A stretch of DNA of 64,000 nt from assembly GCA_021737145.1 (NCBI GenBank), contig JAIPEN010000002.1:1-64000 (forward strand), read 5' to 3'. The first letter of the stretch is position 1. The number at the start of each line of letters is the position of its first letter. The notes below the pieces were generated by a model that was given only the letters and a program-made list of their open reading frames with translations, ran no database searches and was not told the origin of the DNA. The stretch is from Desulfarculaceae bacterium. Lineage in GTDB: Bacteria; Desulfobacterota; Desulfarculia; Desulfarculales; Desulfarculaceae. The position numbers and the translations under genes are program-made. This document shows positions 36,340-59,840 of the stretch, one piece after another.

Positions 36340-36344
36340 GATTT

Positions 36345-36603
36345 AGCCCCCATATTTCATGAAGGCCAGGCGTCCGGCTGCGCCAGCCACCGGCATACGG
36401 TGTTGCTGACTGCGCTCGGGCCTCGGCGTAGCTTGGGCTACGCCCGCGGCCCTCGCTTGCCAGACGCCTTGTCTGCCGGCGCCTGGCTGTGCCGGGTCTG
36501 GGTGCAAGCCGTGTATTGTTAGCGCTGGCGCTCGTTTCATAACGGCCCCATGAATACTGGATCTTTCCTTAGTGCCACCCAACCCTCATGAAAAATGCGG
36601 GCT
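36345..36603. repeat. Hairpin-containing repeat with terminal inverted repeats, copy A
   Basis: A 259-bp non-coding element. Left end (36345-36366) and right end (36582-36603) are 22-bp inverted repeats matching the ends of copy C. Inside are outer arms at 36382-36395 and 36474-36487, and a central stem CGTAGC/GCTACG (36427-36442). It fills the gap between the TusE-like gene and the aldehyde oxidoreductase; the oxidoreductase stop codon starts inside the right end. No open frame of coding character is present, and no transposase is nearby. Confidence 0.8.
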
Positions 36604-39277
36604 AGCTCCCCGACTTGCCCAGGGCGGCCAGCACCTTGTCCGGGGTGGCCGGCAGGTCGGTGATAAAGGCCCCGATGGCGTGCTTGATGCCGTTGATCAC
36701 CGCCGGGGCGGTGGGCACCAGGCACATCTCGCCCACGCCGGTGCAGCCCAGGGTGCCGTTGGGGCGCGGGGTCTCTCGGATGATCACCTCTTGGGGGAAG
36801 GAGGTGGCCATGGTGGGGAACTTGAAGCTCCGCCAGTCCTTGGTCTCGCCGGCCACGTATTTTTCCCGCAGGGCCAGGCCCACCCCCATGTCCGCGCCGC
36901 CCTCGAGCTGGCCGGTGAGGTTGTTGGGGTTGAGCACCGGACCGGCGTCCACCGCGGTGGTCATCTTGACGATCTTGACCTCGCCGCTCTCGGTGTCCAC
37001 CTCCAGCTCCACCAGCTGCACCGCGTGCACCTGGGATTCCATTGAGGGGCCCTGTCCGGTCTCCGGGTCCAGGGCGCCGGCCAGCTTCATCTTCTTGGTG
37101 CCCAGATAGCGGGCCGGCTTGCCGGCCGCCTCCAGCTCGGGGCCGGTCTTGGCCCCGGTCTCGTCCATGGCCGCCTTGAGCTGCTTGAGGGCGTCCTCGG
37201 CCGCGCCGCCGATCATGTAGGTGATGCGGCTGCCGGCCGCCGGGCCCGAGGCCGCGGTCAGGTCGGTGGAGCGGGTGTAGAGGCGCACCTTGCTCAGCGG
37301 GATGCCGGTTATCTCGGCCGCGATCTGGGTGAGCATGGAGTCGTTGCCCTCGCCGGGATCGGCCGCGGCGGCATAGACGCTCACCCCGCCGTCGGTGTCC
37401 AGCTCGCAGGCCGCGAAGCCCTGGTCGCCCGGGCCGCCGATGCCGAAGGAGCCGGTGGCCAGGCCCACGCCGCGCTTGATCTTATCGCTCTGGGCGGCGG
37501 CGGCGTCCTTTTTGGCCCGTTCGTAATGGGGCCGGATGGACTCCATCAGCTCGGGGATGGGCCACTCGGTCACCTCATGGCCGGTGGACTTGCTCTGGCC
37601 CGGCTCGAGGAAGTTGTTCAGGCGGAACTCCAGGGAGTCCTGGCCCATCTTGTCGGCCAGCATCTCCATGGCCACTTCCAGGGCGAAGTTGGCCTGGGGC
37701 GGCCCCGCGCCCCGGGCCGCGGCCCCCCAGGGATTGTTGGTGTAGACCAGGCGGCTGTCCGCCTTGACGTTGGGGATGTTGTAGGAGCCCGAGAGCATCA
37801 TCAGGGCCCGGAGCACCACCACGTGGCCCATGGAGTGATAGGCCCCGTTGTCCACCAGGATGTCGTTGAAGTAGGCGGTGAGCTTGCCCTGGGAATCGGC
37901 GGCCAGCTTCACCTCCATGCGGAAGGGATGGCGCTTGGGGGTGAGCAGCATGGACTCGTGCAGGGAGGGGATGTAGCGCACCGGCTTTTTGAAGTACACC
38001 GCCGCCGCCGCGCAGATGCCCTCGGAGCCCACGTCGATCTTCAGGCCGAACTGGCCGCCGACAAAGGCCTCCTCGTAGCTCATGTTTTCCCAGCCCACCG
38101 CCTCCTGCAGCATGTGCAGGTGATGGTGGATGTTGATGGAGCGGCCCACCACCACCAGATGAGGGTCTTCCGGGTCCTCGTAGTCCCAATAGGCCACCGT
38201 GGACTCGGGCTCCAGGGGCGCCTGGTGAATGCACTGGGTGTTGAACACCGTTTCGATGACCGTTTCGGAATCGGCCAGGGCGGCCTCGGCGTCGCCCTTG
38301 ATCTGGGGCTGGTGGAAGCACAGGTTGGGCCGCTCGTTGTCGGCGTGGAGCTGGAAGGCGTCCTCGGCCATGGCCTGCTCCGGGGTCTCCAGCACCGGCT
38401 GGGGGTCCAGCTCGATCTTCACCGCCGCGGCCGCGGCCTCGGCCTCGGCCTTGGTGCGGGCGGCCACGGCCACCATGGCATCGCCGATGTAGCGCACCCG
38501 GTCGGTGCACAGCACGGGCCGGTCCACCACCATGTACTTGAGGATGTTGGTGCCGGTCTGAAGGATGTCCTGTCCGGTGAGCACCCCCTCCACCCCGGGC
38601 ATGGCCTCGGCCGCGCTGGTGTCGATGGACTTGATCAGGGCATGGGGCACCTCGGAGCGCACCACCGCGATCTCCAGGGCGCCGGGGATGTTGTAGTCGG
38701 CCGTGAAGCGGGCCACGCCGCAGGCCTTTATGTAGGCCGAGGGGCGGGGATGGGACACGCCCAGAACCGGCGCGTCCGGAGCCGGGGCCACCTCTTCCGG
38801 GGTGGTCTCGCCGCGCAAAAAGCGTGCGGCCAGCTTGACCGCCTCGATGATCTTCACGTAGCCGGTGCAGCGGCACAGGTTGCGCCTGAGCGCCTTCTTG
38901 ATGGTCTCGTCATCGGGATCGGGGTCTTGGTCCAACAGGGCCTTGGTGGCCATGATCAGGCCCGGGGTGCAAAAACCGCACTGCACCGCGCCGGAGAGCA
39001 CATAGGCATGCTGAATCAGGTGGGGGTTGTCCGGGGTTCCCAGACCCTCCACGGTGATTACCTTGGCCCCGTCCAGCTTACTCAGCTTGGTCAGGCAGGA
39101 GAGCACCGCCTTGTTGTCCACGATCACGGTGCAGGCCCCGCACTGGCCCTTGCGGTCGCAGGACTGCTTGGTTCCGATCAGATCCAGATCCTTGCGCAGG
39201 AAGTCCAGCAGAACCTCGTCCTTGCCGGCCATGACCTCGTGCGGCAGACCGTTAACCTCGAAAGACACTTTTTGCAT
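36602..39277 (-). CDS. Aldehyde oxidoreductase, Mop-type molybdenum hydroxylase
   Basis: Single-chain xanthine oxidase family enzyme (891 residues) oxidising aldehydes to acids with a molybdopterin-cytosine dinucleotide cofactor. Domains in order: plant-type [2Fe-2S] (Cys40, 46, 49, 61, with an extra residue between the first two cysteines compared with Desulfovibrio Mop), helical [2Fe-2S] (QCGFCTPG, NLCRCTGY), then the two molybdenum-binding domains with GGQFGLKI, WGAAARGAG and the catalytic glutamate in GVGEMCLVP near the C-terminus. ATG at 39277 has GGAG upstream. It lies downstream of a formate dehydrogenase and upstream of a sulfur-relay pair. Physiological aldehyde unknown; cofactor could be Mo with a sulfido ligand. 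Confidence 0.9.
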   Translation of the reverse strand: MQKVSFEVNGLPHEVMAGKDEVLLDFLRKDLDLIGTKQSCDRKGQCGACTVIVDNKAVLSCLTKLSKLDGAKVITVEGLGTPDNPHLIQHAYVLSGAVQCGFCTPGLIMATKALLDQDPDPDDETIKKALRRNLCRCTGYVKIIEAVKLAARFLRGETTPEEVAPAPDAPVLGVSHPRPSAYIKACGVARFTADYNIPGALEIAVVRSEVPHALIKSIDTSAAEAMPGVEGVLTGQDILQTGTNILKYMVVDRPVLCTDRVRYIGDAMVAVAARTKAEAEAAAAAVKIELDPQPVLETPEQAMAEDAFQLHADNERPNLCFHQPQIKGDAEAALADSETVIETVFNTQCIHQAPLEPESTVAYWDYEDPEDPHLVVVGRSINIHHHLHMLQEAVGWENMSYEEAFVGGQFGLKIDVGSEGICAAAAVYFKKPVRYIPSLHESMLLTPKRHPFRMEVKLAADSQGKLTAYFNDILVDNGAYHSMGHVVVLRALMMLSGSYNIPNVKADSRLVYTNNPWGAAARGAGPPQANFALEVAMEMLADKMGQDSLEFRLNNFLEPGQSKSTGHEVTEWPIPELMESIRPHYERAKKDAAAAQSDKIKRGVGLATGSFGIGGPGDQGFAACELDTDGGVSVYAAAADPGEGNDSMLTQIAAEITGIPLSKVRLYTRSTDLTAASGPAAGSRITYMIGGAAEDALKQLKAAMDETGAKTGPELEAAGKPARYLGTKKMKLAGALDPETGQGPSMESQVHAVQLVELEVDTESGEVKIVKMTTAVDAGPVLNPNNLTGQLEGGADMGVGLALREKYVAGETKDWRSFKFPTMATSFPQEVIIRETPRPNGTLGCTGVGEMCLVPTAPAVINGIKHAIGAFITDLPATPDKVLAALGKSGS

Positions 39278-39479
39278 GTCCGACTCCAAGTTTTCCTGCC
39301 AGCGGCGGCGAACCGCTGGCGCCCGGCGTGATTTTGCTCCGGGTCAAAAATGGGCAATTTCGGCATATTTAATCATAGAGGTAGCAGACGCGCAACCAGG
39401 CGTCCGAAAAGCGGCCCCTGCCTAACGCATTGCGCCAACTGTCGATTCGTCCTCCACCGGCCGCATGGGGCAAAGCAAG

Positions 39480-39505
39480 GGCCCGGAGCCTCGCGGCCCC
39501 GGGCC
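39480..39505 (-). terminator. Hairpin after formate dehydrogenase
   Basis: GGCCCGG/CCGGGCC stem with an AGCC/GGCC inner extension about 37 bp beyond the fdhA stop on the minus strand; followed by CTTGCTTTG. It may separate fdhA from the aldehyde oxidoreductase gene. The remainder of the 265-bp gap 39278-39542 shows no coding pattern and probably holds the oxidoreductase promoter (AT-rich around 39330-39385). Confidence 0.5.
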
Positions 39506-39542
39506 TTTGGGGGGATTTCGCTTTTTTCGCCGCGCCTCGGGG

Positions 39543-42233
39543 CTAGGCCTTTTCCAGCTTGACCGCGCAGGCCTTGTATTCGGCGGTCTGGGAGACCGGG
39601 TCGTAGACCGGGTTGGTGAGCCAGTTGGCGCAGGCCTCGCGGAAGTGGAAGGCCATCCACACCATGCCCTCCTGCACCTCCGGGGTCACCCTGGCGGTGA
39701 GCTCCACCGAGCCCCGCCGGGTGCTGAGCTTGACCCGCTCGCCGTTGGCGATCTCCAGCTTGGCCGCGTCGGCCAGGGAGATGTCGGCGGTTTCCTCGCC
39801 CATGAGGTCGTTGAGCCCGCCGCTGCGCCCGGTCTGGGTGCGGGTGTGGTAGTGGTACAGCCGGCGGCCGGTGCTGAGCACTAGGGGGTACTCCTCGTCG
39901 GGCACCTCGGCCGGGGGGGTCCATTCCACGGCCTTGAAGTTGCCCAGGCCGCAGGTGAAGCAGCCGTCCTTGTGCAGGAAGGGGGTGCCCAGGTGCTCCA
40001 GGTCGGGCACCGGCCACTGCAGGCCGTCGTTCTCGATGCGTTCGAACTTGATGCCGGTCATCTGGGGAGCCAGCATGGAGACCTCGTTGTCCCAGATCTC
40101 CTGGCCGCTGTCCGCTTCCCAGTCCTGGCCCATGCGCTTGGCGATCTCCTTGAAGACCCACCAGTTGGGCTTGGCCTCTCCCGGCGCCTCCACGGCCTTG
40201 CGCACCCGGTTCACCCGGCGCTCGCTGTTGGTGTAGGTGCCGTCGTCCTCGCTCCAGGCCGCGGCCGGGAAGACCACGTCGGCGAAGCGGGTGGTCTCGG
40301 TGGGGAAGATGTCGTTGCACACCACGAACTCGGCCTCTTCCAGGCAGTGCTCCACGTGGGCGATGTCCGGCTCGGTGTTGGCCACATTCTCCCCGAAGAT
40401 GTAGAAGCCCTTTACCGAGCCGTCGGCCAGGCCCTCGAACATGGCCGGGATCATCAGGCCGTTGGCGGGCGAAAGCTCCGCCCCCCAGGCCTTTTCGAAC
40501 TTCTCGCGGGCCGCGTCGTCCACAACCTTTTGATAGCCGGGGTACACGTTGGGCAGGGCGCCCATGTCACAGGCCCCTTGCACGTTGTTCTGGCCGCGCA
40601 GGGGGTTCACCCCGCCGCACTCGAAGCCCACGTTGCCCAGAAGCATCTGGAAGTTGGCGCAGGAGAGCACGTTGTTCACGCCGCAGGTGTGCTCGGTGAT
40701 GCCCAGGGTGTACATGAGCATGGCCGGCTTGTTGGCCGCCATCAGGCGGGCCACTTCCACGATCTGCTCGGCGGGCACTCCGCTGATCTCGGCCGCCCGC
40801 TCGGGCGGATACTCCATCACCTTGGCCTTGAGCTCCTCGAAGCCCACGGTGCAGCTCTCCACGTACTTCTTGTCGTAGAGCTCCTCGGTGATCAGCACGT
40901 GCATCAGGCCGTTCAAGAGGGCGATGTCCGTGCCCACCTTCAGCGGCAGGTGCGTGGTGGCGAAGTCGGCCAGGGCGGTGCGCCTCGGGTCCACCAAGAC
41001 CAGCTTGGCCCCGTTGAGCACCGCGTTTTTCACGAAAGTGGAGGCCACGGGATGGGCCTCGGTCATGTTGGAGCCGATGATGAAGAACATCTCGGCCTTG
41101 TCGAAGTCGGCGAAGCTGTTGGTCATGGCCCCGGAGCCGAAGGAGGTCGCCAGACCGGCGACCGTGGGGGCGTGTCAGGTTCGTGCGCAGTGATCGATGT
41201 TGTTCGTACCGATCACCGCGCGGAAAAGCTTTTGCATCTGGTAGGAGTCTTCGTTGGTGCTGCGGGCGCAGCTCACCCCGGCAATGGCGTCGGGGCCGTG
41301 TTTCTCCTTTATCTCCAGGAACTTGTTGGCCACCAAGTCCAGGGCCTCGTCCCAGGAGGCCTCGCGGAACTCGCCATCCTCTTTAATAAGGGGCTTGGTC
41401 AGGCGCTCGGGGCTGTTCACGAAGTCGTAGCCGAAGCGGCCCTTGACGCAAAGGCGGCCCCGGTTGGGCTGGGCCTCCTCCACCGCGGTCACCTTGACGA
41501 TGCGGTTGTCCTTGACGTGCAGCCATAGCTGGCAGCCCACCCCGCAGTAGGGGCAGGTGGTGCGGACCTTCTGGGTCTCCCAGGAGCGGCCCAGGCCCTT
41601 GGCCTTTTTCTCGGTCAGGGCCCCGGTGGGGCAGACCTGCACGCACTGGCCGCAGAACACGCAGTCGCTCTGGTCGTAGGGACGGTCGCCGGTGGTGACG
41701 ATCTTGGCCTCGGCCCCCCGGTAACCGAAGCCGATGGCCCGGTTAACCTGCACCTCGTTGCAGGCCTGCACACAGCGGCCGCAGAGGATGCACTTGGAAA
41801 AATCGCGGGTGATCAGCGGGTTGTCGTCCTCGATGGGGTATATCTCGGTGGGGGAGGGGAAGCGGGTGGCGTCCACTCCGTACTCGTAGGCCAGGGCCTG
41901 CAGCTTACACTCGCCGTTGGCCTCGCAGACCAGACAGTTGTGAACGCCCGAGGACAGCAGCAGCTCCACGGCCAGGCGGCGGGCGACCCGCACCTTGTCG
42001 GTGTCGGTTTGCACCTCCATGCCCTCGCCGGCGGGCATGGCGCAGGAAGCCACCAGGGTGCGGGCACCCTTGACCTCCACCACGCACATGCGGCAGGCCC
42101 CGGTGGGGGTGCAGTCCTTGAGGTAGCACAGGGTGGGTATGTCGACCCCGTTGCGCTCGGCGACCTGCAATATGGTCTCGCCGGGCGAGAATTCCACCTC
42201 TACGCCGTTGAGCTTGAGCTTGGATTCAGCCAT
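39543..42233 (-). CDS. fdhA: Selenocysteine formate dehydrogenase catalytic subunit (UGA read as Sec353)
   Basis: Oxidises formate or reduces CO2 at a Mo/W-bis-MGD centre. The 896-residue protein has a NuoG-like N-terminus: [2Fe-2S] (Cys36, 47, 50, 64), His98/Cys100/Cys103/Cys109 cluster, two ferredoxin [4Fe-4S] sets (148-158, 191-201). The Mo domain with CPYCGVGC (227-234) follows. The frame is interrupted by TGA at 41177-41175, in the context HCART-U-HAPTVAGLA, which is the active-site Sec position of formate dehydrogenases. A SECIS-type hairpin follows. ATG at 42233 has GGGAG six bases upstream. The Fe-S layout is that of soluble NAD(P)- or ferredoxin-linked enzymes. No partner subunit genes are adjacent. 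Confidence 0.93.
41145..41163 (-). other. SECIS hairpin of fdhA
   Basis: Reading on the minus strand, GGTCGCC pairs perfectly with GGCGACC around a GGTCT loop, starting 11 bases after the UGA. Loop sequence and spacing equal those of the E. coli fdhF SECIS. Confidence 0.92.
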
Positions 42234-42468
42234 GGTCATCTCCCGCTGGATAGGCCCTTGTCGAGGGCGAGGCTGGGGCGGCACGCGGCACCCGCGTGTC
42301 CAAAGCGACATATAGCATCAATCACACGGTTTGTATAGGGTGTTGATCGGCCCGGCCTATGGACAGCCGGTCAGCGGCGCGCCGCCCCTCGAGGGGCCCG
42401 CCCGGAGCGATCCGGGGCCGGGATATGCTATGATCGCGCCTAATGCACTGCCCAACCGGAGAGAAAAT

Positions 42469-43044: not shown

Positions 43045-43060
43045 GAAGGCCGGCTGGGGC

Positions 43061-44365: not shown

Positions 44366-44513
44366 GGTCTTCTCCCCGGCAAGGGCCGCCGCGTGGCGGC
44401 CGGTTGCTTTTACTATAGACCATTTTGAGAAGCCGCCCGGCGCCAGACAAGGGAAAAGCCTCACTTTGAGGCCGCCGCGCCGGGGCTGTACATTGCCCGC
44501 GGGACGGGAGACA

Positions 44514-45962: not shown

Positions 45963-45970
45963 GCCGGAGA

Positions 45971-47161: not shown

Positions 47162-47283
47162 CGGCCGGTTCCCCGGCCAACCTGGACTACCCCGGCTTGA
47201 TGGGTTATTCTGCCTGCCAACCGGCCGGACGCTCCCGCCCAAGGACGGCCGCGCCTGAACCGGAGACAAGAGAGGTGTCCGCC

Positions 47284-48255
47284 ATGCGAAAAATACTCAA
47301 GGTATTGCTGCCCCTGCTGCTGATCACCCTGGCCGCCGCGCCTGCCCTGGCGGCCAAACGCTTCGTGACCATCGGCACCGGCGGAGTGACCGGGGTCTAC
47401 TATCCCGTGGGCAAGGCCATCGCCAAGATGGTCAACGCCCAGGGCAAGCAGTACGGCCTGCGGGTCACCGTGGAGTCCACCGGCGGCTCGGTGTTCAACA
47501 TCAACGCGGTGTTGGGCGGCGATCTGGACTTCGGGGTGGCCCAGTCCGACCGCCAGTACGAGGCGGTGCACGGCCTGGCCGAATGGAAGACCAAGGGCAA
47601 GCAAGGCAAGCTGCGCTCGGTGTTCAGCCTGCACCCGGAAACCTTTTTCATGGTGGCCAGCCAGAATAGCGGCATCAAGGGCTATGCCGATCTCCAGGGC
47701 AAGGCCGTGGCCGTGGGCAACCCGGGCTCGGGCACCCGCCAGAACTCCAAGGACATCCTGGCCGCCTATGGCCTGAGCCTGGAGAGCCTGGGGCGCGCCG
47801 AGGGCCTCAAGGCCTCGGAGTCGGCCAAGGTGTTGCAGGACGGCCGGGTGGACGCCTTTGCCTACACCGTGGGCAATCCCGCCGGGCTGATCAAGGAGGC
47901 CACCAGCGGCCGGGTCAAGGTGCGCTTCCTGCCCACCACGGACGACGCCCTGGCCAAGCTTTTAAAAAACCGCCCCTACTATGTGAAGGCCTCCATCCCG
48001 GTGCATTTCTACGAACAGGCCCTGGACAAGAAGGATGTGCCCACCTTCGCGGTGAAGGCCACCTTTGTCACCCGGGCGGGCATGCCCGACGAGGTGGTCT
48101 ACGCCATCACCAAGATGGTGTTCACCAACCTGGCCGCGCTAAAAAAGCTGCACCCCGCCCTGGAGGTGCTCAAGCCCCGGGATATGCTCCAGGGCCTCAG
48201 CGCCCCCCTGCACCCCGGCGCGCTCAAGTATTTTAAGGAGGCGGGGCTCAAATAG
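47284..48255 (+). CDS. TAXI-family TRAP transporter substrate-binding protein
   Basis: Periplasmic binding protein of 323 residues with signal peptide ending at ALA (residue 23). The mature protein begins KRFVTIGTGGVTGVYYPVGKAIAKMVN, the TAXI hallmark, and contains FGVAQSDRQYEAV, GKAVAVGNPGSGTRQ and DAFAYTVGNP. It serves the fused TRAP permease gene 250 bp downstream, which a repeat element separates from it. AGAGAGGTG lies upstream of the ATG at 47284. TAXI ligands include glutamate and other dicarboxylates; here unknown. Confidence 0.9.
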   Translation: MRKILKVLLPLLLITLAAAPALAAKRFVTIGTGGVTGVYYPVGKAIAKMVNAQGKQYGLRVTVESTGGSVFNINAVLGGDLDFGVAQSDRQYEAVHGLAEWKTKGKQGKLRSVFSLHPETFFMVASQNSGIKGYADLQGKAVAVGNPGSGTRQNSKDILAAYGLSLESLGRAEGLKASESAKVLQDGRVDAFAYTVGNPAGLIKEATSGRVKVRFLPTTDDALAKLLKNRPYYVKASIPVHFYEQALDKKDVPTFAVKATFVTRAGMPDEVVYAITKMVFTNLAALKKLHPALEVLKPRDMLQGLSAPLHPGALKYFKEAGLK

Positions 48256-48536
48256 CCTGCCGGCTTCGCCAGCCACCGGCATACGGTGTTGCTGGCCGCG
48301 CTCGGGCCTCGACGTAGCTAACGGCTACGCCTCCGGCCCTCGCTTGCCAGGCGCCTTGTCTGCCGGCGGCTGGCTGTGCCGGAAGCAGGTCCAAGCCTGG
48401 GGCCGCCTTGTTTGCCGGCGGCCGGCTGTGCCGGAAACAGACGCGAACCGTCCCGCGCCGGCGCCGCTTTCCCCGTGATCGCCTGAACCCTTATATTGGT
48501 TTTGATGCCGCCCAACCCGGATGAAATACGCGGGCT
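48256..48536. repeat. Hairpin-containing repeat, copy B (left end lost, right arm duplicated)
   Basis: Begins directly after the TAXI stop codon and ends at the right terminal repeat 48515-48536. The outer arms are at 48268-48281 and 48361-48374, the inner stem CGTAGC/GCTACG at 48313-48329. A second, diverged right arm is at 48413-48426, giving a tandem duplication of about 50 bp. No left terminal repeat is recognisable. The start codon and first residues of the downstream TRAP permease lie in the right end. Confidence 0.75.
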
Positions 48537-50613
48537 GAAAGCGCCGAAGGATGGCGCTCCCGCTTCTGACGGCCCGGACGAGGGCCTGGCCTCGGCCCAG
48601 GCCGCGGCCGCGGCCGACCTGGGCCTGCGCGATCCCCAGGGCTGGCAGCGGGGCCTCATCCCCGTGGTGGCCGCCGCCTGGTCGGTGTTCCAGCTTTTGT
48701 TGCCCTGGGCCATCCTTTTGGAGACGGTCTACGTGCGGGCGGTGCACCTGGCCTTTGCCATGGTGTTGGTATACCTCTGCTTCCCGGCCATCAAGAAGCA
48801 CGACCTGAAGGGCCGTCTGGGCTACTTCTCCCGGCGGGAGCGCATAGGCCCCCTGGACCTGGTCCTGGCCGGCCTGGCCGGGCTGGCCGCGCTCTACATC
48901 GCCCTGGACCACCAGGGCCTGGCCCTTCGCCAGGGCGACCCGCTCACCCGCGACCTGGTGGCCGGCGGGGTGCTGGTGGTGCTGTTGCTGGAGGCGGTGC
49001 GCCGCTCCCTGGGTCCGGCCCTGGTCCTGGTGGCCATCGCCTTCATGATCTACGCCTTTGGCGGCCCCCACATGCCCGACGCCATCGCCTTCAAGGGGGT
49101 GAGCCTGAGCCGCTTCATGGGCCAGGAGACCATGTCCACCGAGGGCATCTACGGCATCCCCCTGGACGTGTCGGCCAGCATCGTGTTTCTCTTCGTGCTG
49201 TTCGGGGCCATGATGGACCGGGCGGGCGGGGGGCGCTATTTCGTGCGCCTGGCCTTCAGCCTGCTGGGCTCGTTCAAGGGCGGCCCGGCCAAGGCGGCGG
49301 TATTGGCCTCAGGGCTCACCGGCCTGGTGTCCGGCTCCTCCATCGCCAACGTGGTCACCACCGGCACCTTCACCATCCCCCTGATGAAATCGGCCGGCTA
49401 CCCGGCCAAGAAGGCGGCGGCCATCGAGGTGGCCGCCTCCACCGACGGCCAGCTCATGCCGCCCATCATGGGCGCGGCCGCCTTTATCATCGCCGAGTAC
49501 TGCAACCTGGAGTACATGGCCGTGGTCAAGGCGGCCATCCTGCCCGCCCTGCTCAGCTACCTCACCCTGTTTTTCATCACCCACCTGGAGGCGGGCAAGC
49601 TGGGCCTGACCAGCCTGCCCCGCAACCAGCTGCCCCCCTTCTGGGCCACCCTGCGCTCGGGCTTCCACTTCCTGGCCCCCTTGGCGGTGCTCATCTACGA
49701 GCTGATGGTGCTCAGGCACAGCCCGGCCCTGGCCGTGTTCCGGGCCATCGTGGTGCTGGCCGGGCTCATCGTGGCCCAGAGCCTGTGGCGGGCCCTGCGG
49801 GAGGGCGAGGGCTGGGGCGCTGGGCTCAGGGAGGCGGGCGCCATCCTGTGGCAGTCGCTGGTGGCCGGAGGGCGCAACATGATGGGCATCGGCGTGGCCG
49901 TGGCCGGGGCCGGGCTCATCGTGGGGGTGGTGAACATGGGCCTGGGCGGCCTGATCACCGAGATCGTGGAGCTCATGGCCGGGGACAGCCTTTACCTGCT
50001 GCTGGCCCTTACCGCCCTGGCCTGCCTGCTCATGGGCATGGGCCTGCCCACCACCGCCACCTACATCGTCATGGCCTCGCTCATGGCCGTGGTGATCGTG
50101 GAGCTGGGCCCCTCGGCCGGGCTGGTGGTGCCGCTCATCGCGGCCCATCTGTTCGTGTTCTACTTCGGCATCCTGGCCGACGACACCCCGCCGGTGGGCC
50201 TGGCCGCCTACGCGGCCAGCGCCATCGCCCGCTCCAACCCCATCCCCACCGGCCTGCAGAGCTTCACCTACGATCTGCGCACCGCCATCCTGCCCTTCAT
50301 GTTCATCTTCAACACCCGCCTGCTTCTCATCGGGGTGGATTCCTGGTGGATGGGGCTGTGGGTGGGCCTGAGCGGGGTGGCGGCCATGTTCGCCTTTGCC
50401 GCCGCCACCCAGGGCTATCTGCGCCAGCCCAACCGTTGGTGGGAGGGCCTGCTCCTGCTGGCCGCGGCGGCGGTGATTTTGCAGCCCGGGGCCTCGGCCC
50501 GTTTTCTGGGCCTGCCCGGGGCCGAGGCGTCCCAGGCGGTGGGCACCGCTTTGTTCGTGTTGGTGTGGCTGGGCCAGAAGTGGCGGCCCAGGGGGCGCCA
50601 GGCCGTGGCCTAG
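48505..50613 (+). CDS. TRAP transporter fused permease (DctQM type)
   Basis: Membrane importer driven by an ion gradient, 702 residues from the ATG at 48505 (a TTG nine bases upstream is possible). The N-terminal part has four TM helices corresponding to DctQ. The large part is DctM, with GLVSGSSIANVVTTGTFTIPLMKSAGYP, AASTDGQLMPPIMGAAAFIIAEY and MGMGLPTTATYIVMA. About 18 hydrophobic segments are seen. The first dozen residues (PPNPDEIRGLKA) are encoded by the end of repeat copy B and no clear ribosome-binding site precedes the start. The stop codon overlaps the stop of the convergent CDF gene. Confidence 0.88.
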   Translation: MPPNPDEIRGLKAPKDGAPASDGPDEGLASAQAAAAADLGLRDPQGWQRGLIPVVAAAWSVFQLLLPWAILLETVYVRAVHLAFAMVLVYLCFPAIKKHDLKGRLGYFSRRERIGPLDLVLAGLAGLAALYIALDHQGLALRQGDPLTRDLVAGGVLVVLLLEAVRRSLGPALVLVAIAFMIYAFGGPHMPDAIAFKGVSLSRFMGQETMSTEGIYGIPLDVSASIVFLFVLFGAMMDRAGGGRYFVRLAFSLLGSFKGGPAKAAVLASGLTGLVSGSSIANVVTTGTFTIPLMKSAGYPAKKAAAIEVAASTDGQLMPPIMGAAAFIIAEYCNLEYMAVVKAAILPALLSYLTLFFITHLEAGKLGLTSLPRNQLPPFWATLRSGFHFLAPLAVLIYELMVLRHSPALAVFRAIVVLAGLIVAQSLWRALREGEGWGAGLREAGAILWQSLVAGGRNMMGIGVAVAGAGLIVGVVNMGLGGLITEIVELMAGDSLYLLLALTALACLLMGMGLPTTATYIVMASLMAVVIVELGPSAGLVVPLIAAHLFVFYFGILADDTPPVGLAAYAASAIARSNPIPTGLQSFTYDLRTAILPFMFIFNTRLLLIGVDSWWMGLWVGLSGVAAMFAFAAATQGYLRQPNRWWEGLLLLAAAAVILQPGASARFLGLPGAEASQAVGTALFVLVWLGQKWRPRGRQAVA

Positions 50614-51530: not shown

Positions 51531-51570
51531 AGTTTATGCACCCCCGGGGAGGGGAATGCAAATCCTGGCC

Positions 51571-51750
51571 AGAGCGCATGTTTCATGAGGGGTGTGCGGC
51601 GGCAATCAGATGGCATGCGCGCACCTGGTGCTTATGAAAAAAGCGCCTGGGCCGCCAGGGCAAAATTGGCGATTTGATCCGGCCCAACCGGCAACACCGC
51701 ATGCCGGCGGCTGGCGCAGCCGGGCCCGCGGCCTTCATGAATTGCGCCGG
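51571..51750. repeat. Degenerate repeat region, copy E (partial inverted copy)
   Basis: In the 221-bp gap between the CDF start (51530) and kinase stop (51752). Bases 51571-51592 resemble the left terminal repeat (18 of 22). Bases 51690-51745 read on the minus strand match the left part of copies A-C (arm GCCAGCCGCCGGCA at 51715-51702, then GCGGTGTTGC). The central hairpin and right end are missing. It looks like a rearranged, decaying copy. Confidence 0.55.
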
Positions 51751-51751
51751 C

Positions 51752-54700
51752 TCAGTTACGGTCCAGAGTCCGGCGGATGATGCGGGCGATCTCGGCCGAG
51801 CGCAACGGCTTGTGGGCCAGGCTGCGGATGCCCAGGGAGCGCACCTGGGGGCTGGTGATGTGGTCGCTGCTGTAGCCGGTGCACAGGATGATGGGCAGGC
51901 CGGGCCGGAGTTGCAGCATCGACTCGGCCAGGGCGGTGCCGGTGAGGCCGGGCATGGTGTAGTCGGTGATCACCAGATCAAAGGCCTGGGGGTCGGTCCG
52001 GAACAGCTCCAAGGCATCGCGGCTGGAGGTGGCGGTGGTCACCTGGTAGCCCAGGCGCTCCAGGGCCTTGCGCCCCAGGTCCACCAGGGCGGGCTCGTCG
52101 TCCACCAGCAGGATGCGCTCCCGGCCGCCGGGCAGGGAGTTCTCTTGGCTTTCATGAGGCAGCTCGCCGTCCTCCAGCACCGGCAGATACACCTGGAACA
52201 GCGAGCCCTCGCCCGGCCGGCTCTCCACGGACACCGCGCCGTCGTGGGCCAGCACGATGCCGTGCACCACCGACAGGCCCATGCCGGTGCCCGCTCCGGG
52301 CTCCTTGGTGGTGAAGAAGGGGTCGAAAACCCGGCCCAGCGTGTTTTGGTCCATGCCCTGGCCGCTGTCCTTGACCCAGAGCATCTGGTAGGACCCTGAC
52401 TTCAGGTTGGGCGGCGCGTCCGGTTGGCCGGCCTTCACCTCGATTGTTTTGAGCCCCACCTCGACGAAGCCGTTTTCATTGATGGCCTGGGCCGCGTTGG
52501 TGCACAGGTTCAACAGCACCTGGTGCATCTGGCTCTGGTCGGCCATGATCAGCACGTCCTCGTCGCTGATGTCCTGGCGGATATCGATATAGGCGGGTAT
52601 GGAGGGCCTGAGCAGCTTGAGGGTCTCCTTGACCAGCACCGCAAGCCGCATGGGGCGCTGGTGCTCTTCGCCGGGCCGGCTGAAGTTGAGCACTTGGCGG
52701 GTGAGGTCGCGGGCCCGGCGGGTGGCACTGAGTATATGACCGACGTTGTCGCGGCTCGGATGCCCGGCGGGCAGGTCGTCCTGAGTCAGCTCGGCATAGC
52801 CCATGATGGCGGCCAGGATGTTGTTGAAGTCGTGGGCGATGCCCCCGGCCAGGGTGCCCACCGCCTCCAGCTTCTGGGACTGGCGCAGCTGGGCCTCCAG
52901 GGCCCTGGCGTGTTCCTCGGCATTTCTGGTCTCCGAGTAGTCCTCGTGGGTCACCACCAGGTTCTGCACCTGACCCTGGTTGTCCTTGAGGGGATAGAAA
53001 CGGGTCTTGAGCCAGCGCACCCGGCCCCGGCCCCGGCCCTCGGTGGGCCCTCTGCCGTCGAAGCGGTAGGGCGGGATGTCCACCACCTCGCCGGCATAGG
53101 CCCGCTCGGCGTAGGGCCGCAGGCCCAGACGGGCGAACTCCTGGCTCTTGAACAGGTTGAAATGGCCCACCGTGTGGCTGGCCGGGAAGTCCCACAGCTC
53201 CTCGTAGGCCCGGTTTACCTGGATCTGGTTGCCCTTGGCGTCGTAGATCTCGATCACCGAGGGCGACTGCTCCATGAGCTGGCGGAAGCGCTCCTGGGTC
53301 TGGGCCAGCATCTCCTCGGCCTGCTTGCGCTCAGTGATGTCCCGCAGCACGCTGAGGATGCCCATGGGTTGGTCACCGTCGGACTTGAGCAGCGAGACGG
53401 TGTGCTCGGTGGGGAATATCTCGCCGTTTTTGCGCTTGCACTCGAACTCGAAGTGGGCCGCCTCGCCCCGGTCGAAAGCCTCCTGGAGGCGCCGGCCGAA
53501 CTCCAGGTAATGCTCGTGATCCACGTGCACCACCTCAGTGGAATGCTCGATAAGCTCTTGGGTGGTGTAGCCGAATATGTCGCTGGCCGCAGGATTGACC
53601 CTAACGGTGCGCCGATCCGGGGTGACCACGAAGATGGCGTCCGCCTGGGCGCTGAAGGTGGCCTCCAGCCATAGCTGGGACTCCCTGAGCTCCTCCTCGG
53701 CCTGCTTGCGTTCGGTTATGTCCTGGAAGGTGCCGTAGACTCTGACCGCCTTGCCGTTCACCCGCTCGGCCCGGCCCAGGGCGCGGCACCACTTTATCTT
53801 GCCCTTGCCGGTTTTGGCCTCGGCCTCGAAGTCCAGGGGAACATCGTCCTCCACCAGGGCCCGCATGGCCTCCTTGATCATGTCCCGGTATTTGGGCAGG
53901 TACCAATCGACATGGTCATCGGGCCCGGGGATGGGCTGGCCAGGCTCGATCTCCACGATGTCATAGGTGCCCTTGGTCCACTTGGACTGGCGGGTGACCA
54001 GGTCCATTTCCCAGCCGCCGATCTTGGCGATGGCGCCCACCTCGTTGAGCAGGGCCTCGCGCTCCTTGAGTTCCTGCTCGTAGCGGCGCTGCTCGGTTAT
54101 GTCCAGGGCCACGGCGTAGGTGACGCCCTTTTCCGGGTCCGGATGGGAGTTCCAGTTGAGCCAGACGTACTCGCCGTCCTTGCGGCGGTAGCGGTTGGTG
54201 AAGTTGATTACCTTGTCGCCCCGGGTCAGCTGCTCGTCCACCACTTTCCGGGTGGGCTCCACGTCGTCGGGATGAAGGAATTGCATGAAGGAAACCCCGA
54301 CCAGATCTTCCTGGGCGTAGCCCAGCACCGTGGTGAAGGCGGGGTTGACCTTGAGGAAGGTGGTGGTCTTGATGTCCGCCACGCAGATCAGGTCCATGGA
54401 CATGTTGAATATCTCGTTCAGCTCGTCCTGGGCCTTCTTGCGTTCGGTTATGTCGGCCACTTGGGAGACCATGAACAGCGGCTGGCCCTGGCCGTCGCGC
54501 AGGAGGTTTCCGTTTATCCGCACCCAGATGGTCGCGCCGTCCTTGCGCAGATAGCGCTTCTCCTGCTCATAGGTTTCCACCTCCCCCTTTCCAAGCCGCT
54601 GGCTGGCCAGCTTGGCGGACTCCAAGTCCTCGGGGTGGGTGATGTCCACGAAGGTGAGCTCCTTGAGCTCCTCCGGGGAGTATCCCAGCATCTCGGTCAG

Positions 54701-57472
54701 CGCCTCGTTGACTGACAGGAAACGGCTGTCCACGCCCACCAGGGCCATGCCGATGCCCGCGTTGTCAAAGGCGGAACGGAACTTCTCCTCGCTCTGGCGG
54801 ATGGCCTCCTCGGCCTTCTTGCGCTCGGTTATGTCTTGGAAGATGACCGCGAACTGGCCCGGGGCCGGGGAGTAGGCCAAAACCTCGAAGTGACGGTCCA
54901 GGGGCTGGCTGTAGTTTTCGAAACGCTTCGGCTCGCCGCCCAGGGCCACCCGGCCGTAGGTTTCGATCCAGTGCTCCTCGGTGTCGGGCAGCACCTGGCG
55001 CACCGTGCGCCCCAGGATGTCGGCCGCCTTGAGCCCGGTGAGCTGTTCGAAGGCCGGGTTGACCTCCAGGAAGCGGTAATCCACCGGCTGGCCCTGGTCG
55101 TCGGTGATGATCTCGTGCAGGGCGAAGCCCGAGAGCATGGAGCTGAACAACTGGCGGTAGCGTTCCTCGCTGTCCTTCAGGCTTTGTTCGGCTTTCTTGC
55201 GCTCGGTTATGTCCAAGACGCTGCAAAAAACCGAGATGAGCTGGCCGTTGTCGTCCAGCAGGGCCGAGTTGTACCAGGCGCAGTCGATGACCGTGCCGTC
55301 CTTTTTGTAGTTGCGGTTGAAATTGGTGTTGCTCTTGGACTTGCCGGCCATCATGTTGGCGATGAGCTGGCTCACCTGGGGCTCGTCTTCCTGGTGGATG
55401 AAGCGGATATTGCTCAGGGTCTTGCCCATGACTTCATCGGCCTTCCAGCCGAAGATGCTCTCGGCCTGGGGCGACCAGTAGATGATCCGGTATTCGCGGT
55501 CGAACTCCACCACCCCCAGCGGCGAGTTGCCCAGGTGGGAGGTCAGACGGTTCAGGGCCTGGCGCAGCTCCTGCTCAATTTTTATGCGATCGGTGATGTC
55601 ATCGGCGATGCCGCAGATCATGCTCACCTGGTCCTGATCGTCGAGCACCGGGAAGGAGCGGACGGCTAACCAGCGGATCTCGCCGTCGCCGCGCACCACG
55701 CGGTAAATGGGGAACTCCGTGGGCTGGTTCGGGTCCGTGGTCCGCATGAAATTCTCTATCTCTTGCCGGTCCTCCGCGGGCAGGGGCTCCAGCCAGGATA
55801 GGCCATCCCGGTAGAGGCTTTCCCGGCTGCGCCCCCAGACCCGTTCGTAGACGGGGCTGACGTAGTGGACTTCTTTCCAATCCGGCGAGCCGACCCAGAA
55901 AACCGAGTTGATGTTCTCCACCAGTTGGCGGAAGCGGGTCTCGCTTTGCCGGATGGCCTCCTCGGCCAGCTTGCGCTTGGTAATATCCTGGATCACCCCC
56001 ACCAGGGTCCAGAAGGAGCCGTCCGGGTGGTGCAGCCGCTGGCCGGACAAGAAACCCCAGAAGGTGCCGCCGTCGGCCCGGCGGTATAGCCGCTCATGGG
56101 AAACCTGTCCCACCTCTCCCGCCATGAGCTGGTGCATCTTTTGGCCGGCCTCTTGGTCATGACCCTCGGCGATATAATCCAGGTAGGCGCTGCCCACCAG
56201 CTCCTCTTGGCCGACCCCCAGCATCTGGGCCATGCGGGGGTTGGCCATGGTGATCACCCCCTGGTCGTCCACCAGGATGATGCCCGCCTGCACCGTGTTG
56301 TAGATGCCCCGCAGGGTCTCCTCGCGGCGGGCCAGCTCCTCCTCGGCCAGCTTGCGCTCGGTCATGTCGTGGGAAACGATTTGGGCGGCATACACCCGTC
56401 CGGCCGCGTCGCGCAGCGGCTGCAGGATGGAGAGCAGCCAGCGGGGGCCATTGGGGAAGCTCACCAGATCTTCGTATTCGGAAGGCTGGCCGGAATCGAT
56501 TACCTTGGCGATGCGGCGCGAATATTCCTCGCCCACCGAGGGGTGGAGTTGGCTGAAGCTTTTACCCATAAACTGCTCGGGGGAGCCTCCGAACAACTGG
56601 GCCACGCGCTGGTTCATCAACAGGCAAATGCCCTGGCGATCATAGACCGAAATCAATGACTCGGAGCCATCGAAAAGCAGGCGGAAGCGCTCCTCGCTTT
56701 CTCTCAGGTTGCGCGCGGCCTGCTTGGCCTCCACCAGGGCCCCGATCAGGCGGGCCGTGGTGGCCAGGCGCTTCCTGACCTGCCCCACGACCTCCGGGGA
56801 GTGGGATGGGTGGGTCTTGGCCTCTTGCTCCAAATCCTTGAGCTTCAGGCCGTAGTTTTTGGCGATTTTCTTGAGCCCGGCCTTGTCCGAGGGCGGGTCG
56901 CCGTAGCCGATGACGATGGCCCCCACCAACTCCTGGCCGGCGGTGATGGGCATGCCGTAAAAGCGCAGGCCGCCGGCGCAAGCCGAGTCCACCGGCTCGC
57001 CGCTGTCCATGGCTTGCCGGGCGCAGTCGTTCCAGCAGGACTCGCGGCAGAGCCACTTGCCGCTCTCCAGGGCCTGCCGGTCGTCTTGGGTCCGGCACAG
57101 CCGGCGGGAGGCGCCGCTGAGCAGGCGGCACCAGCCGGGGGCAAAGGTGTTCAGGGCGTAGTCGCCGTTTTTTTCATAGACCGCGACAAAGGTGCCCAAC
57201 AGGTCCAGGTAGTCGTCGGCCACCTCGGCCAGGGTTTTGGGGCCCACGCTGTCCAGGATAAGGCGGGAGGTGTTGATCTCGGTGAGGTCTCCGTGGGGCT
57301 GGTCGACCAAGTCAGATTGCTCCCGGCGCCGCTGGCGGCCTTTGCAGAAACGCCCGCTGGGTTTGCGGCCGGGGGCTGTTGAAGGGGCGGCAAGCACTCC
57401 AGCCGAAACGCCGCTCCGCAGCCCGGATTCAGGGGCGCCCCTCAACAGGCGGCGCCACGGGGATATGGCCAC
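51752..57472 (-). CDS. Multi-PAS hybrid histidine kinase with N-terminal PocR-like domain
   Basis: A soluble sensor kinase of up to 1906 residues without TM segments. Order: PocR ligand-binding domain (about 65-235; cysteines in [32 protein letters not shown]). Ten PAS/PAC units follow (about 265-1520), each closing with a DITERK-like linker. The HisKA domain carries [15 protein letters not shown], then HATPase_c ([23 protein letters not shown]), and a C-terminal receiver has its phospho-acceptor in [10 protein letters not shown]. The GTG start at 57472 has AGGAGG only three bases away, so the true start may be a downstream TTG or other codon. No partner output gene is adjacent. Confidence 0.88.
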
Positions 57473-57554
57473 GGACCTCCTAGTAAATTCTACTAATTAG
57501 CGGCCCGAAACCGCAAGCCAAAGCGTATCGGGCGGCCGGGAAGGCCGGGACGGG

Positions 57555-57821
57555 TCAAAAAGGGCGCTTGTGGTCAAAGGCGGTGGTGAACTTGCGGCCC
57601 AGCAAATACAGGAGGCCGGCCCCGGCGATCTGGATGCACAGGGCCTCCAGGAAGGACATGAAAATCAGGGGCAGGACGAACACCGCCAGAACGAACAGGA
57701 TCAGCAGGGGAGCCACGATCTTCCAGTGGGCCTGCAGCCAGGCCTCGCGGGCCTCCTTGGCCTCCCGCTCGGGATCGATCCAGGCGGGTTCTTGTTCCGG
57801 GGGCCGGGAATCGGGGTCCAT
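57555..57821 (-). CDS. Small membrane protein of unknown function
   Basis: An 88-residue protein with a charged N-terminus (DPEREAKEAREAWLQAHWK) and two hydrophobic segments (IVAPLLILFVLAVFVLPLIF and ALCIQIAGAGLLYLLG). It ends in a basic tail. No family recognised. The ATG at 57821 lies four bases from the left end of repeat copy C, and an in-frame GTG at 57833 is inside that end, so its translation start borders on the repeat. It precedes the kinase gene on the same strand by 82 bp. Confidence 0.55.
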   Translation of the reverse strand: MDPDSRPPEQEPAWIDPEREAKEAREAWLQAHWKIVAPLLILFVLAVFVLPLIFMSFLEALCIQIAGAGLLYLLGRKFTTAFDHKRPF

Positions 57822-57824
57822 GCT

Positions 57825-58084
57825 AGCCCGCACTTTTCATAAGGGCCGTGCGTCCGGCTTTGCCAGCCACCGGCATGCGTTGTTGCTGTCCGCGTTCGGG
57901 CCTCCACGTAGCTTGAGCTACGCCTTCGGCCCTCGCTTGCCAGGCGCCTTGCCTGCCGGCGGCTGGCTGTGACGGGTTTGAGCGCAAACCTTGTCTCGAT
58001 GAAGCAGGTAATTTTTTCATAGTGGCTCCCATCGATATCGGCTCGTTTTTTAGTGCCACCCAGCCCTCATGAAATATGCGGGCT
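57825..58084. repeat. Hairpin-containing repeat with terminal inverted repeats, copy C (best preserved)
   Basis: A 260-bp element. Terminal repeats at 57825-57846 and 58063-58084 match in 19 of 22 positions when inverted. Outer arms 57862-57875 and 57954-57967 pair in 13 of 14 positions; the inner stem CGTAGC-TTGA-GCTACG is at 57907-57922. The right third (GTGCCACCCAGCCC) is also shared with copy A. The rest of the 453-bp gene-free gap, 58085-58274, shows no coding pattern and presumably holds the promoter of the lipoprotein gene. Confidence 0.85.
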
Positions 58085-58274
58085 CGCCTCCCGCCGCCAC
58101 CAGGCGGCTCGTGCCTTGATATACCACAAGCGGAGGCCCGGCTCCCGGCCTTTGGCCCCCTGTTGGACCGTTTCGTGATATTGTGTTAACAATCAGGCCC
58201 GTGGCGGGCAGGAACCCGCCAGCGGCGTGAGAGGCCCACAAGCAGGGATGGCCCAGGAGACGGACTGCCGCAAG

Positions 58275-58616
58275 ATGAGCAAATTGTCCATGGCGAGGAT
58301 GTTTCTGCTGGCCGCCGCCTTGGCCCTGGCCCTGCTGGCCGCCGGCGCTTGCGGCGGGGCCGGGCCGGACAGCCCGGACGCCAAGAGCCTGGAATACGAG
58401 GACGAGGGCTGGTGCTACCGCTGGGTGCCCCAGGGCGAGGCCGATCTGGACAAGGCCCGCGAGTATTGTAAAAAGCGGGTGCTGGAGCGCCGCAAATACC
58501 TGGGCCAGACCCTGGGCAAGCAGGCCGAGCTAGGCCCCACCTCCTGGAACCAGGAAGCCTGCCTGAAGATCCTGGGCTGGGAGCGCTGCCCCCAGTCCGA
58601 CTTCGAATCCGAATAG
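58275..58616 (+). CDS. Small putative lipoprotein
   Basis: A 113-residue protein with an Ala/Leu-rich signal ending in LLAAGAC, a near-lipobox with the cysteine at about residue 27. The mature part is hydrophilic, with Cys pairs (GWCYRWVP, REYCKKRVLE, EACLKILGWERC). No family recognised. Start choice is uncertain: ATG codons at 58248, 58275 and 58290 are in frame and none has an ideal ribosome-binding site. A CaCA exchanger gene begins 48 bp downstream on the same strand. Confidence 0.5.
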   Translation: MSKLSMARMFLLAAALALALLAAGACGGAGPDSPDAKSLEYEDEGWCYRWVPQGEADLDKAREYCKKRVLERRKYLGQTLGKQAELGPTSWNQEACLKILGWERCPQSDFESE

Positions 58617-58664
58617 GGCGGCTCCGGCCGTTTTTCCCCACCCCACTTCCCGGGAGCCGAGCGC

Positions 58665-59708
58665 GTGGCTGGCGAGCTTGTGAAATGGATCGGCAGTGAG
58701 GAGGCGCTCAACCACCTCGTGGCCGGTTTGCCCTCATGGGGGCTGCTGCTCTTGTTGGCGGTGTGCATCTTGGTGCTGTCCAAGGGCGCCGACTTCATGG
58801 TGGACGGCGCGGTGTCCCTGGCCCGGCGCACCGGCCTGCCCCGCATCGTCATCGGGGCCACCATCATCAGCCTGGGCACCACCACCCCGGAAATGTTCGT
58901 GAGCGTTCTGGCCGCCTGGACCGGCAACCCCGGCCTGGCCCTGGGCAACGGGGTGGGCTCCATCATCTGCGACACCGGCCTGATCTTCGGGCTCATGTGC
59001 CTTATCAGCCGGGTGCCGGTGCGGCGCTTCATCCTCAACCGCACCGGCTGGTGGCAGGTGGGTTCGGCCACCCTGCTGGTGGTGCTGTGCCTCATCGCCC
59101 TGTGGGCGGCCCCGGCCGCCCCCACCCTGGGCCGGGGAGTGGGCCTGCTCTTGCTGCTGCTGCTGGCGGCCTATCTGTACATGTCCTACCGCTGGGCCCG
59201 CCAAAGCGGCCTGCTGTCGGAGGATGTGGGCGACGAAAAGGAGTGGGGCCTGTGGGCCGCCCTGGGCCTGACCCTGTTGGGCCTGGTGGGGGTGATCGCC
59301 GGCTCGCGGGTGCTGGTGCCCACCGCGGCCGAGGGAGCCCTTCGGATGGGGGTGCCCCAGGACGTCATCGCCGCCACCCTGGTGGCCTTCGGCACCAGCC
59401 TGCCCGAGCTGATGACCGCCATCAGCGCGATAAGGAAGGGCCAGCCCCAGATCATGGTGGGCAACGTGGTGGGGGCCGACGTGCTCAACTGCCTGTTCGT
59501 CATCGGCGCGGCGGCCATGGCCCGCCCCCTGGCCGTGCCGGACAACTTCTTCACCTTCCACTTCCCGGCCATGCTGCTGATCCTCTACAGCTTCCGGGTG
59601 TTCATCTTCATGAACAGCGACGGCTGGTTCAAACGCTGGCAGGGGGCCTGGATACTGAGCATCTACGCCGCTTATCTGGTCCTGCAATACGGCCTGGAGC
59701 TGGGCTAG
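58665..59708 (+). CDS. Calcium/sodium:cation antiporter (CaCA, YrbG-like)
   Basis: A 347-residue membrane protein with about ten TM helices in two inverted halves. Each half carries an alpha-repeat: IVIGATIISLGTTTPEMFVS and VIAATLVAFGTSLPELMTAI. The two conserved glutamates coordinate the cation. It probably exports Ca2+ in exchange for H+ or Na+. The GTG start at 58665 gives the expected N-terminal helix; no strong ribosome-binding site is visible. The stop codon directly abuts repeat copy D. Confidence 0.88.
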   Translation: MAGELVKWIGSEEALNHLVAGLPSWGLLLLLAVCILVLSKGADFMVDGAVSLARRTGLPRIVIGATIISLGTTTPEMFVSVLAAWTGNPGLALGNGVGSIICDTGLIFGLMCLISRVPVRRFILNRTGWWQVGSATLLVVLCLIALWAAPAAPTLGRGVGLLLLLLLAAYLYMSYRWARQSGLLSEDVGDEKEWGLWAALGLTLLGLVGVIAGSRVLVPTAAEGALRMGVPQDVIAATLVAFGTSLPELMTAISAIRKGQPQIMVGNVVGADVLNCLFVIGAAAMARPLAVPDNFFTFHFPAMLLILYSFRVFIFMNSDGWFKRWQGAWILSIYAAYLVLQYGLELG

Positions 59709-59840
59709 ACGTCCGGCTTGGTCAGCCACCGCCATTCGGCGTCGGCTGCCGCGCTTGGGCCTTGAGGTGGCTTTTGCCACGCCCGCGGCCCTCGCTTGCC
59801 GCCGCCTTGACTGGCAACGGCTGACGGCGCCGGCAAACCA
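59709..59840. repeat. Hairpin-containing repeat, copy D (diverged, no terminal repeats)
   Basis: Starts at the CaCA stop codon. It keeps the hairpin organisation with different sequence: outer arms GTCAGCC (59721) and GGCTGAC (ending 59825), inner stem GTGGC-TTTT-GCCAC (59767-59780). The block GCCCGCGGCCCTCGCTTGCC is shared with copies A-C. Terminal repeats are missing. Confidence 0.7.

What the first reader, a model, noticed from the sequence alone, without database searches (positions are those of the whole stretch)
36345..59840. Family of about 260-bp hairpin repeats with 22-bp terminal inverted repeats and compensatory base changes
Copies at 36345-36603, 48256-48536, 57825-58084 and 59709-59840, plus a degenerate one at 51571-51750, share outer arms and an inner hairpin. 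The inner stem is GTAGC/GCTAC in A-C but GTGGC/GCCAC in D. The outer arm begins GCCAGCC/GGCTGGC in A-C but GTCAGCC/GGCTGAC in D. Paired substitutions in two separate stems mean that a folded RNA or DNA structure is being conserved. Terminal repeats suggest a non-autonomous mobile element. Such density (five in 23 kb) suggests a large family genome-wide.
Basis: seen in the sequence. Interest (0 to 1): 0.78.

Follow-up and report, generated by a model that had tools for sequence, protein, structure and literature searches.

The report
Folded hairpin repeats at stop codons
About a hundred copies of a folded DNA hairpin are scattered through this bacterial genome, mostly sitting at the ends of genes, and matched double mutations show that its folded shape is being kept; diverged relatives occur in other genera of the phylum.

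Summary
A and C are full ~260-bp elements (terminal repeats, hairpin core, tail). B lacks an intact left end, D is a core without terminal repeats, 51571-51750 is a degenerate member. A core model gives about 104 places in this genome, copies in all 7 congeners searched and diverged relatives in 35 of 395 phylum genomes. Empty sites in a syntenic congener show that full elements inserted; the clearest show a duplicated TA. Covariation is strong: 219 two-sided cells against 71 in shuffles for cores, 133 against 23 for the terminal-repeat helix. In that helix wobble pairs favour one strand (G.U 196, A.C 27), which speaks against palindrome correction alone. New here: 77-80 of 101 full elements abut a stop codon, which the element's own TAG forms, and 44 of 57 solo cores start within 10 nt of one. 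No transposase with matching ends was found. Best reading: a non-autonomous structured repeat that inserts at TA, works like ERIC/Correia repeats, and survives at gene ends because it remakes the stop. What the fold does is not shown.

The parts
36344..36604 (+). Copy A, full element; lies between two minus-strand genes, its right TIR supplies the TAG stop (36602-36604) of the gene 36602-39289; present also at the orthologous place in congener G006
48256..48537 (+). Copy B, composite: core 48260-48382, duplicated 3' core piece, tail and right TIR, left TIR not intact; follows the stop codon of gene 47275-48255; empty in G006
51571..51752 (-). Degenerate copy with most of the core missing; empty in G006
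57824..58085 (+). Copy C, full element between divergent genes; empty in G006 (11 nt between the flanking matches)
59708..59834 (+). Copy D, solo core without TIRs, directly after the stop codon of gene 58665-59708, before a convergent gene; no element by profile at the G006 place, which holds 323 nt of other sequence with a short remnant-like piece

Best explanation
A family of non-autonomous structured mobile repeats. The full ~260-bp element (TIR TAGCCCGCATATTTCATGAGGG, hairpin core, tail, TIR) inserts at a TA that is most often the TA of a stop codon. The element continues with G, so TAG is remade and the gene is not broken; insertions therefore survive at gene ends and at tight operon junctions. 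Shown: TIRs, empty sites, position at stop codons. Inferred: that the TA duplication is general, and a TA-specific transposase acting in trans. The core also exists alone, mostly directly after stop codons in sense orientation, and in diverged form in other families of the phylum with other basal arms. One strand (the reverse of the coordinates used here) is kept folded by compensatory changes with G.U tolerance, so selection sees a single-stranded form, RNA or ssDNA (inferred). At tight operon junctions this strand is the mRNA strand; the likeliest effect, as for ERIC and Correia repeats, is on processing and stability of that mRNA (inferred, untested).
For: Empty sites: of 21 element places on contig C19, 14 have none by profile at the G006 place, 12 of them with at most 81 nt between flanks; reverse direction 4 of 12. 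TA duplication clear at three of 16 sites shown. Stop codons: 80 of 101 full elements abut one (77 with a tighter limit), against 219 of 1548 non-coding or stop TA sites and 136 of 454 YTAR sites. Covariation. Strand: G.U 196 against A.C 27 in the TIR helix, in the bare register of 24 positions 199 against 31; minus strand folds better in 79 of 85 full elements. Relatives.
Against: No transposase partner: DDE_3 in 0 of 8 genomes of the genus; PF13701 only fragments without nearby TIR. At several empty sites the duplicated pair reads TG or TC or is blurred. With the core structure predicted on the + strand, G.T on + exceeds A.C (solo 85:64, full cores 72:27), so the strand sign in the core depends on which structure is used; only the TIR register is free of that choice. 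Solo cores are + sense to the gene they follow, while their minus strand folds better (46 of 56), so selection on that gene's mRNA does not explain them simply.
Confidence: 0.6

Rival explanations
1. The core is primarily a functional RNA element of 3' ends (processing, stabilising or protein-binding hairpin) kept for the host, and the TIR form is a mobile derivative that carries it.
For: 44 of 57 solo cores start within 10 nt of a same-direction stop codon, 32 of 57 between convergent genes; 7 of 21 profile places on C19 shared with G006; conserved unpaired motifs and strong covariation. In 70 distant copies a stop codon lies within 45 nt of the 5' end in 22 and of the 3' end in 8.
Against: Dozens of copies next to unrelated genes, absent next to orthologs in G006 at 12 of 21 places; the better folding strand is antisense to the gene the solo core follows; one search uses crude ORFs and 12 of 70 copies lie inside a long ORF.
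Confidence: 0.2
2. The paired changes are not selection but DNA-level correction: template switching in a long imperfect palindrome copies one arm onto the other.
For: Long near-perfect palindrome; many TIR pairs changed on both sides within single copies; the constraint does not depend on orientation to the gene.
Against: Correction is blind to strand, but in the TIR register G.U on the minus strand outnumbers A.C 199 to 31, and 116 to 30 without the three innermost positions. Shared ancestry and strand-biased mutation are not excluded.
Confidence: 0.13
3. A REP-like repeat moved as single-stranded DNA by an HUH (Y1, RAYT) transposase.
For: Strand-specific hairpin with conserved unpaired motifs, extragenic, high copy number.
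Against: No Y1_Tnp match in this genome (other genomes not tested). Full elements have TIRs and a TA duplication at the clearest sites, which REPs are not known for (recalled).
Confidence: 0.04

Closest known systems
ERIC / IRU repeats of enterobacteria (127 bp)
   Same: Short intergenic hairpin repeats, many copies, TA at the termini, near gene 3' ends, effect on mRNA reported (passages of PMC2229807 and PMC10969869)
   Different: Other bacteria; about 260 bp; separate TIR, core and tail; stop-codon position and strand-biased covariation measured here; sequence similarity to ERIC not tested
Correia / NEMIS elements of Neisseria
   Same: TIRs, target duplication and TA at termini, no transposase gene, transcripts form long stem-loops cut by RNase III (passages)
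   Different: Different TIR sequence (recalled); Correia elements are described as mostly upstream of genes and carrying promoters, here ends abut stop codons
RUP of pneumococcus (107 bp, IS630-Spn1)
   Same: Non-autonomous, insertion at TA (passage)
   Different: RUP has an IS630 partner; here DDE_3 is absent in 8 of 8 genomes of the genus
REP / BIME with RAYT
   Same: Extragenic hairpins in high copy number
   Different: Longer, full form with TIRs, no Y1_Tnp in the own genome

Membership tests
MITE (generic) | Short, with terminal inverted repeats | tested here: met
   full elements about 260 bp with about 22-bp TIRs; solo cores have none
MITE (generic) | Target-site duplication | tested here: inconclusive
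   TA clear at three of 16 empty/filled pairs, blurred at others
MITE (generic) | Related autonomous element with the same ends | tested here: not met
   DDE_3 0 of 8 genus genomes; PF13701 fragments without TIR; TIR pattern in 4 genomes, no framing pair seen
ERIC | Sequence match to the ERIC consensus | not tested
   no ERIC model was compared
Correia (NEMIS) | Correia TIR sequence | not tested
   no Correia sequence was compared; the TIR here is TAGCCCGCATATTTCATGA
REP / RAYT | Y1 (RAYT) transposase in the genome | tested here: not met
   0 of 1 genome (own) for PF01797; control genomes rang in 5
Any Rfam family | Match at the curated score | tested here: not met
   0 matches in the window; in 6 loci at relaxed threshold 6 weak matches, all far below their gathering scores and outside the cores

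The most novel reading that the evidence does not exclude
A stop-codon-inserting structured element whose folded strand does work at operon junctions: the paired TIRs bring the upstream stop codon next to the downstream start codon, so that translation stays coupled across a 260-nt insertion. This would explain why elements whose better-folding strand is the mRNA strand sit within 20 nt of the next start (27 of 47) and those facing the other way do not (1 of 24), and why the TIR helix is kept by G.U-tolerant covariation.
Probability: 0.12. Interest if true: 0.85.

Novelty: new variant of a known kind. Interest (0 to 1): 0.6.

Why it matters
The short mobile hairpins described in the review passages I saw are from enterics, Neisseria, streptococci and a few other groups. 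Here is a family whose apical core recurs in 26 of 245 genera sampled in a phylum, whose stems and terminal repeats covary, and whose insertion at stop codons is harmless because the element completes a stop itself. With about a hundred copies per genome and a syntenic relative that lacks many of them, it makes two open questions testable: what moves such orphan repeats, and whether selection on them acts on RNA, on single-stranded DNA or not at all.

Tried and rejected
Intrinsic terminator in the tail on the + strand as the reason for the orientation bias: 10 of 85 elements pass a simple hairpin-plus-T test against 4-6 in five shuffled sets, 2 of 85 on the minus strand; too weak to use.

IS1380 (PF13701) as source of the TIRs was a lead from memory: only fragments, and none of the TIR motifs framing them (one ATGCGGGC inside the L331 fragment, one AATGCGG in L332). 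IS630-type DDE_3: 0 of 8. TIR pattern in G005 and three genomes of family f31: 58 sites; reading the list I saw no inverted pair 0.8-3 kb apart framing a transposase; ORFs were listed for two loci.

A mini-ORF in the TIR (ATG AAA TAT GCG GGC TAG) as a selected feature: TIR conservation explains it equally; not tested further.

Wobble counts that go the other way: with the + strand core structure G.T on + exceeds A.C, so the core does not settle the strand. In one search the inner pairs with rare G.U give 54 G.U to 28 A.C over all classes, a weaker excess than in the TIR.

The first TIR count let the register float, which inflates paired changes; replaced by the fixed alignment. The first structure had two-sided changes in only 7 of 37 pairs, because the 31 copies were much alike.

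Plasmid and phage collections: no match to copy C. Paper searches: listings and starts of abstracts only; passages seen of PMC10969869 and PMC2229807. None of what I saw describes this family; that is no proof that it is unpublished.

Rows dropped: and the pair part of 80 leave out composite copy B and the L209 copy; 53, 79 and 80 (pairs) use 85 of 101 elements (250-275 bp). The 101 elements (34 from this genome, 67 from others) come from 296 sequences in hand, largely chosen by likeness to the core or to copy C. One search counts 90 distinct copies, not all 104 places.

Full report
The window is G000:C19:1-64000 of an unnamed 4.03-Mb genome in 29 contigs. A 22-base piece of the core occurs in 58 stretches of genome contigs, with titles such as Desulfocarbo indianensis SCBM, Desulfarculus sp. 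SURF_10, Desulfarculaceae MAGs, and unspecific Proteobacteria or Deltaproteobacteria MAGs. Records of the window's own genome may be left out there.

Anatomy. A full element is TIR, hairpin core (about 128 bp), tail, TIR, about 260 bp; A and C are of this kind. There are also solo cores such as D, forms in which most of the core is missing (C19:259470-259596, 384432-384645) and forms with an extra ~96-bp module X. X was found in 36 rows, 32 distinct, each beside element parts; its junctions lie after GCCAGCC or after CTCGCTTGCC and before CCGGCATAC or before CGCCTTGTC in most rows, in some (L124, L125, L103) X sits at both places, and in a few (L123, L126, L203, L255) it replaces what lies between.

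Copy number and range. Copy C has 44 matching rows in the genome. Core model R1 gives 118 rows at E<=0.01, about 104 places after 14 opposite-strand shadows (my count). Of 30 genomes in the relatives search 9 have matches: this genome, its 7 congeners (28-111 rows each, 115 candidates scored per genome) and one genome of another genus (43 rows); 21 have none. Model R2 (inner core, 45 sequences) matches at E<=1e-6 in 35 of 395 phylum genomes, 26 of 245 genera, with 10 candidates scored per genome, so counts are lower bounds; E-values are rough. Seven loci of family f31 (L306-L309, L311-L313) have TIR-like ends close to TAGCCCGCATTTCTC, much like the TIR here; other families have other arms.

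Insertion. On C19 (388 kb) the full-element profile gives 21 places; 7 have an element at the orthologous place in G006 and 14 have none by profile. Of the 14, 12 have at most 81 nt between the flanks in G006, 2 hold other sequence (323 and 1006 nt). In 400 kb of G006 there are 12 places: 7 shared, 4 empty in G000, 1 without ortholog. Copies B, C and the degenerate one are among the empty ones; A is shared. Remnants below the profile threshold would be missed. A TA duplication is clear at C19:203100 and at two G006 elements (323016 and 368514 in the 400-kb numbering); elsewhere divergence blurs it and some flanks read TG or TC.

Fold and covariation. Forty-six mostly solo and diverged cores, minus strand: 94.0% of cells paired, 27 of 37 pairs with two-sided change, 219 such cells against a shuffled mean of 71.3 (0 of 500 reach it) and 27-62 in slid registers. 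On the + strand with 89 distinct cores: 22 of 37 pairs, 216 cells against 52.5, slid 30-55. Distant copies, 67 distinct: 24 of 27 pairs, 361 cells against 112.1, on an alignment fitted to the model and so leaning to it. TIR helix in 85 full elements: 20 of 23 pairs, 133 cells against a mean of 23 and a maximum of 44 in 200 shuffles, slid 17-46. None of these corrects fully for relatedness.

Strand. The minus strand folds better in 79 of 85 full elements (mean -141.0 against -128.3 kcal/mol), 46 of 56 solo cores and 27 of 27 cores of full elements; in 12 sampled full elements mean z is -9.2 against -7.4. In the TIR helix G.U outnumbers A.C 196 to 27; in the bare register without regard to predicted structure 199 to 31, and 116 to 30 over the outer 21 positions. 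At the 19 pairs where G.U is rare the counts are 36:8, 21:8, 3:2 and 23:4 in elements with the right end, left end, both ends or no end at a stop codon. The excess does not depend on orientation to the gene. Against it: with the core structure predicted on + the excess turns to +, so the core does not decide the strand. The TIR excess speaks against palindrome correction alone, and suggests that a single-stranded form is constrained, without telling RNA from ssDNA; strand-biased mutation is not excluded.

Position. Genes were called with a simple codon-usage finder of my own, which is approximate. With element end and gene end within 4 nt or overlapping, 80 of 101 full elements abut a stop codon: right end 47, left end 24, both 9, neither 21; with overlap limited to 6 nt 77 of 101; in 46 the stop is exactly the TAG of the right TIR and in 21 that of the left. 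On C19, 219 of 1548 TA sites that are non-coding or in stop codons are stop-codon TA; for YTAR 136 of 454. An ORF entering the TIR by chance meets its TAG in one frame of three, and some empty sites show the stop at the same place. Right-end elements exceed left-end ones (47 to 24, p 0.009); a same-direction gene starts within 20 nt of the far end in 27 of 47 against 1 of 24 (p 7e-6), although in 3 further left-end cases the finder starts the gene inside the element. Of 57 solo cores, 49 have a same-direction gene upstream, 44 with its end within 10 nt, and 32 lie between convergent genes. In 70 distant copies, with crude ORFs, a stop codon lies within 45 nt of the 5' end in 22 and of the 3' end in 8, one counted in both; 12 lie inside a long ORF.

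How it works, step by step: insertion (shown by empty sites); TA target (shown at few sites); stop remade as TAG (shown by sequence); transposase in trans (inferred, not found); selection on a folded single strand (inferred); effect on the mRNA (inferred by analogy with ERIC and Correia repeats, passages). The bridging idea in the novel case is a hypothesis only.

Comparison. It works like ERIC, Correia and RUP repeats and is MITE-like, but no autonomous partner was found, so I do not file it under an IS family. By the one test made it is not a REP/RAYT system, and it matches no Rfam family at the curated score.

Noticed in passing
window 48496-48560: By my gene finder the DctM-type transporter gene 48505-50613 starts inside the tail of copy B (MPPNPDEIRGL... 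by reading the DNA), while the empty G006 site has a different N-terminal stretch; the insertion may have supplied a new start.
   Followed up: partly
L196, L178, L237, L124, L125, L103 and others: A ~96-bp module X is inserted in cores at two sites, sometimes at both, sometimes replacing the apical part; found in 32 distinct places, each beside element parts. C19:273525 has it, the G006 ortholog does not.
   Followed up: partly
L183 (G000:C21:16553-16901): Three diverged cores in tandem with the same linker; the second and third differ little.
   Followed up: no
TIRs of full elements: Read outwards each TIR spells ATG AAA TAT GCG GGC TAG, a five-codon mini-ORF that in operon copies ends a few nt before the next start codon.
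   Followed up: no
C19:227497-227619 and its G006 ortholog: A core is present at the orthologous place in both genomes but in opposite orientation: inversion or independent insertion.
   Followed up: no
L319, L320, L314-L316, L372: Distant copies of the core carry quite different outer arms (CAGGCTGCTGAAAAAG, GATGGCTAAGCACAAAAGT, GAACGCAATAAATG), as if one apical core had been combined with several terminal-repeat families.
   Followed up: partly
window 51752-57310: A 1852-aa hybrid sensor kinase with a PocR domain, ten PAS_4 stretches, HisKA, HATPase_c and a receiver domain.
   Followed up: no
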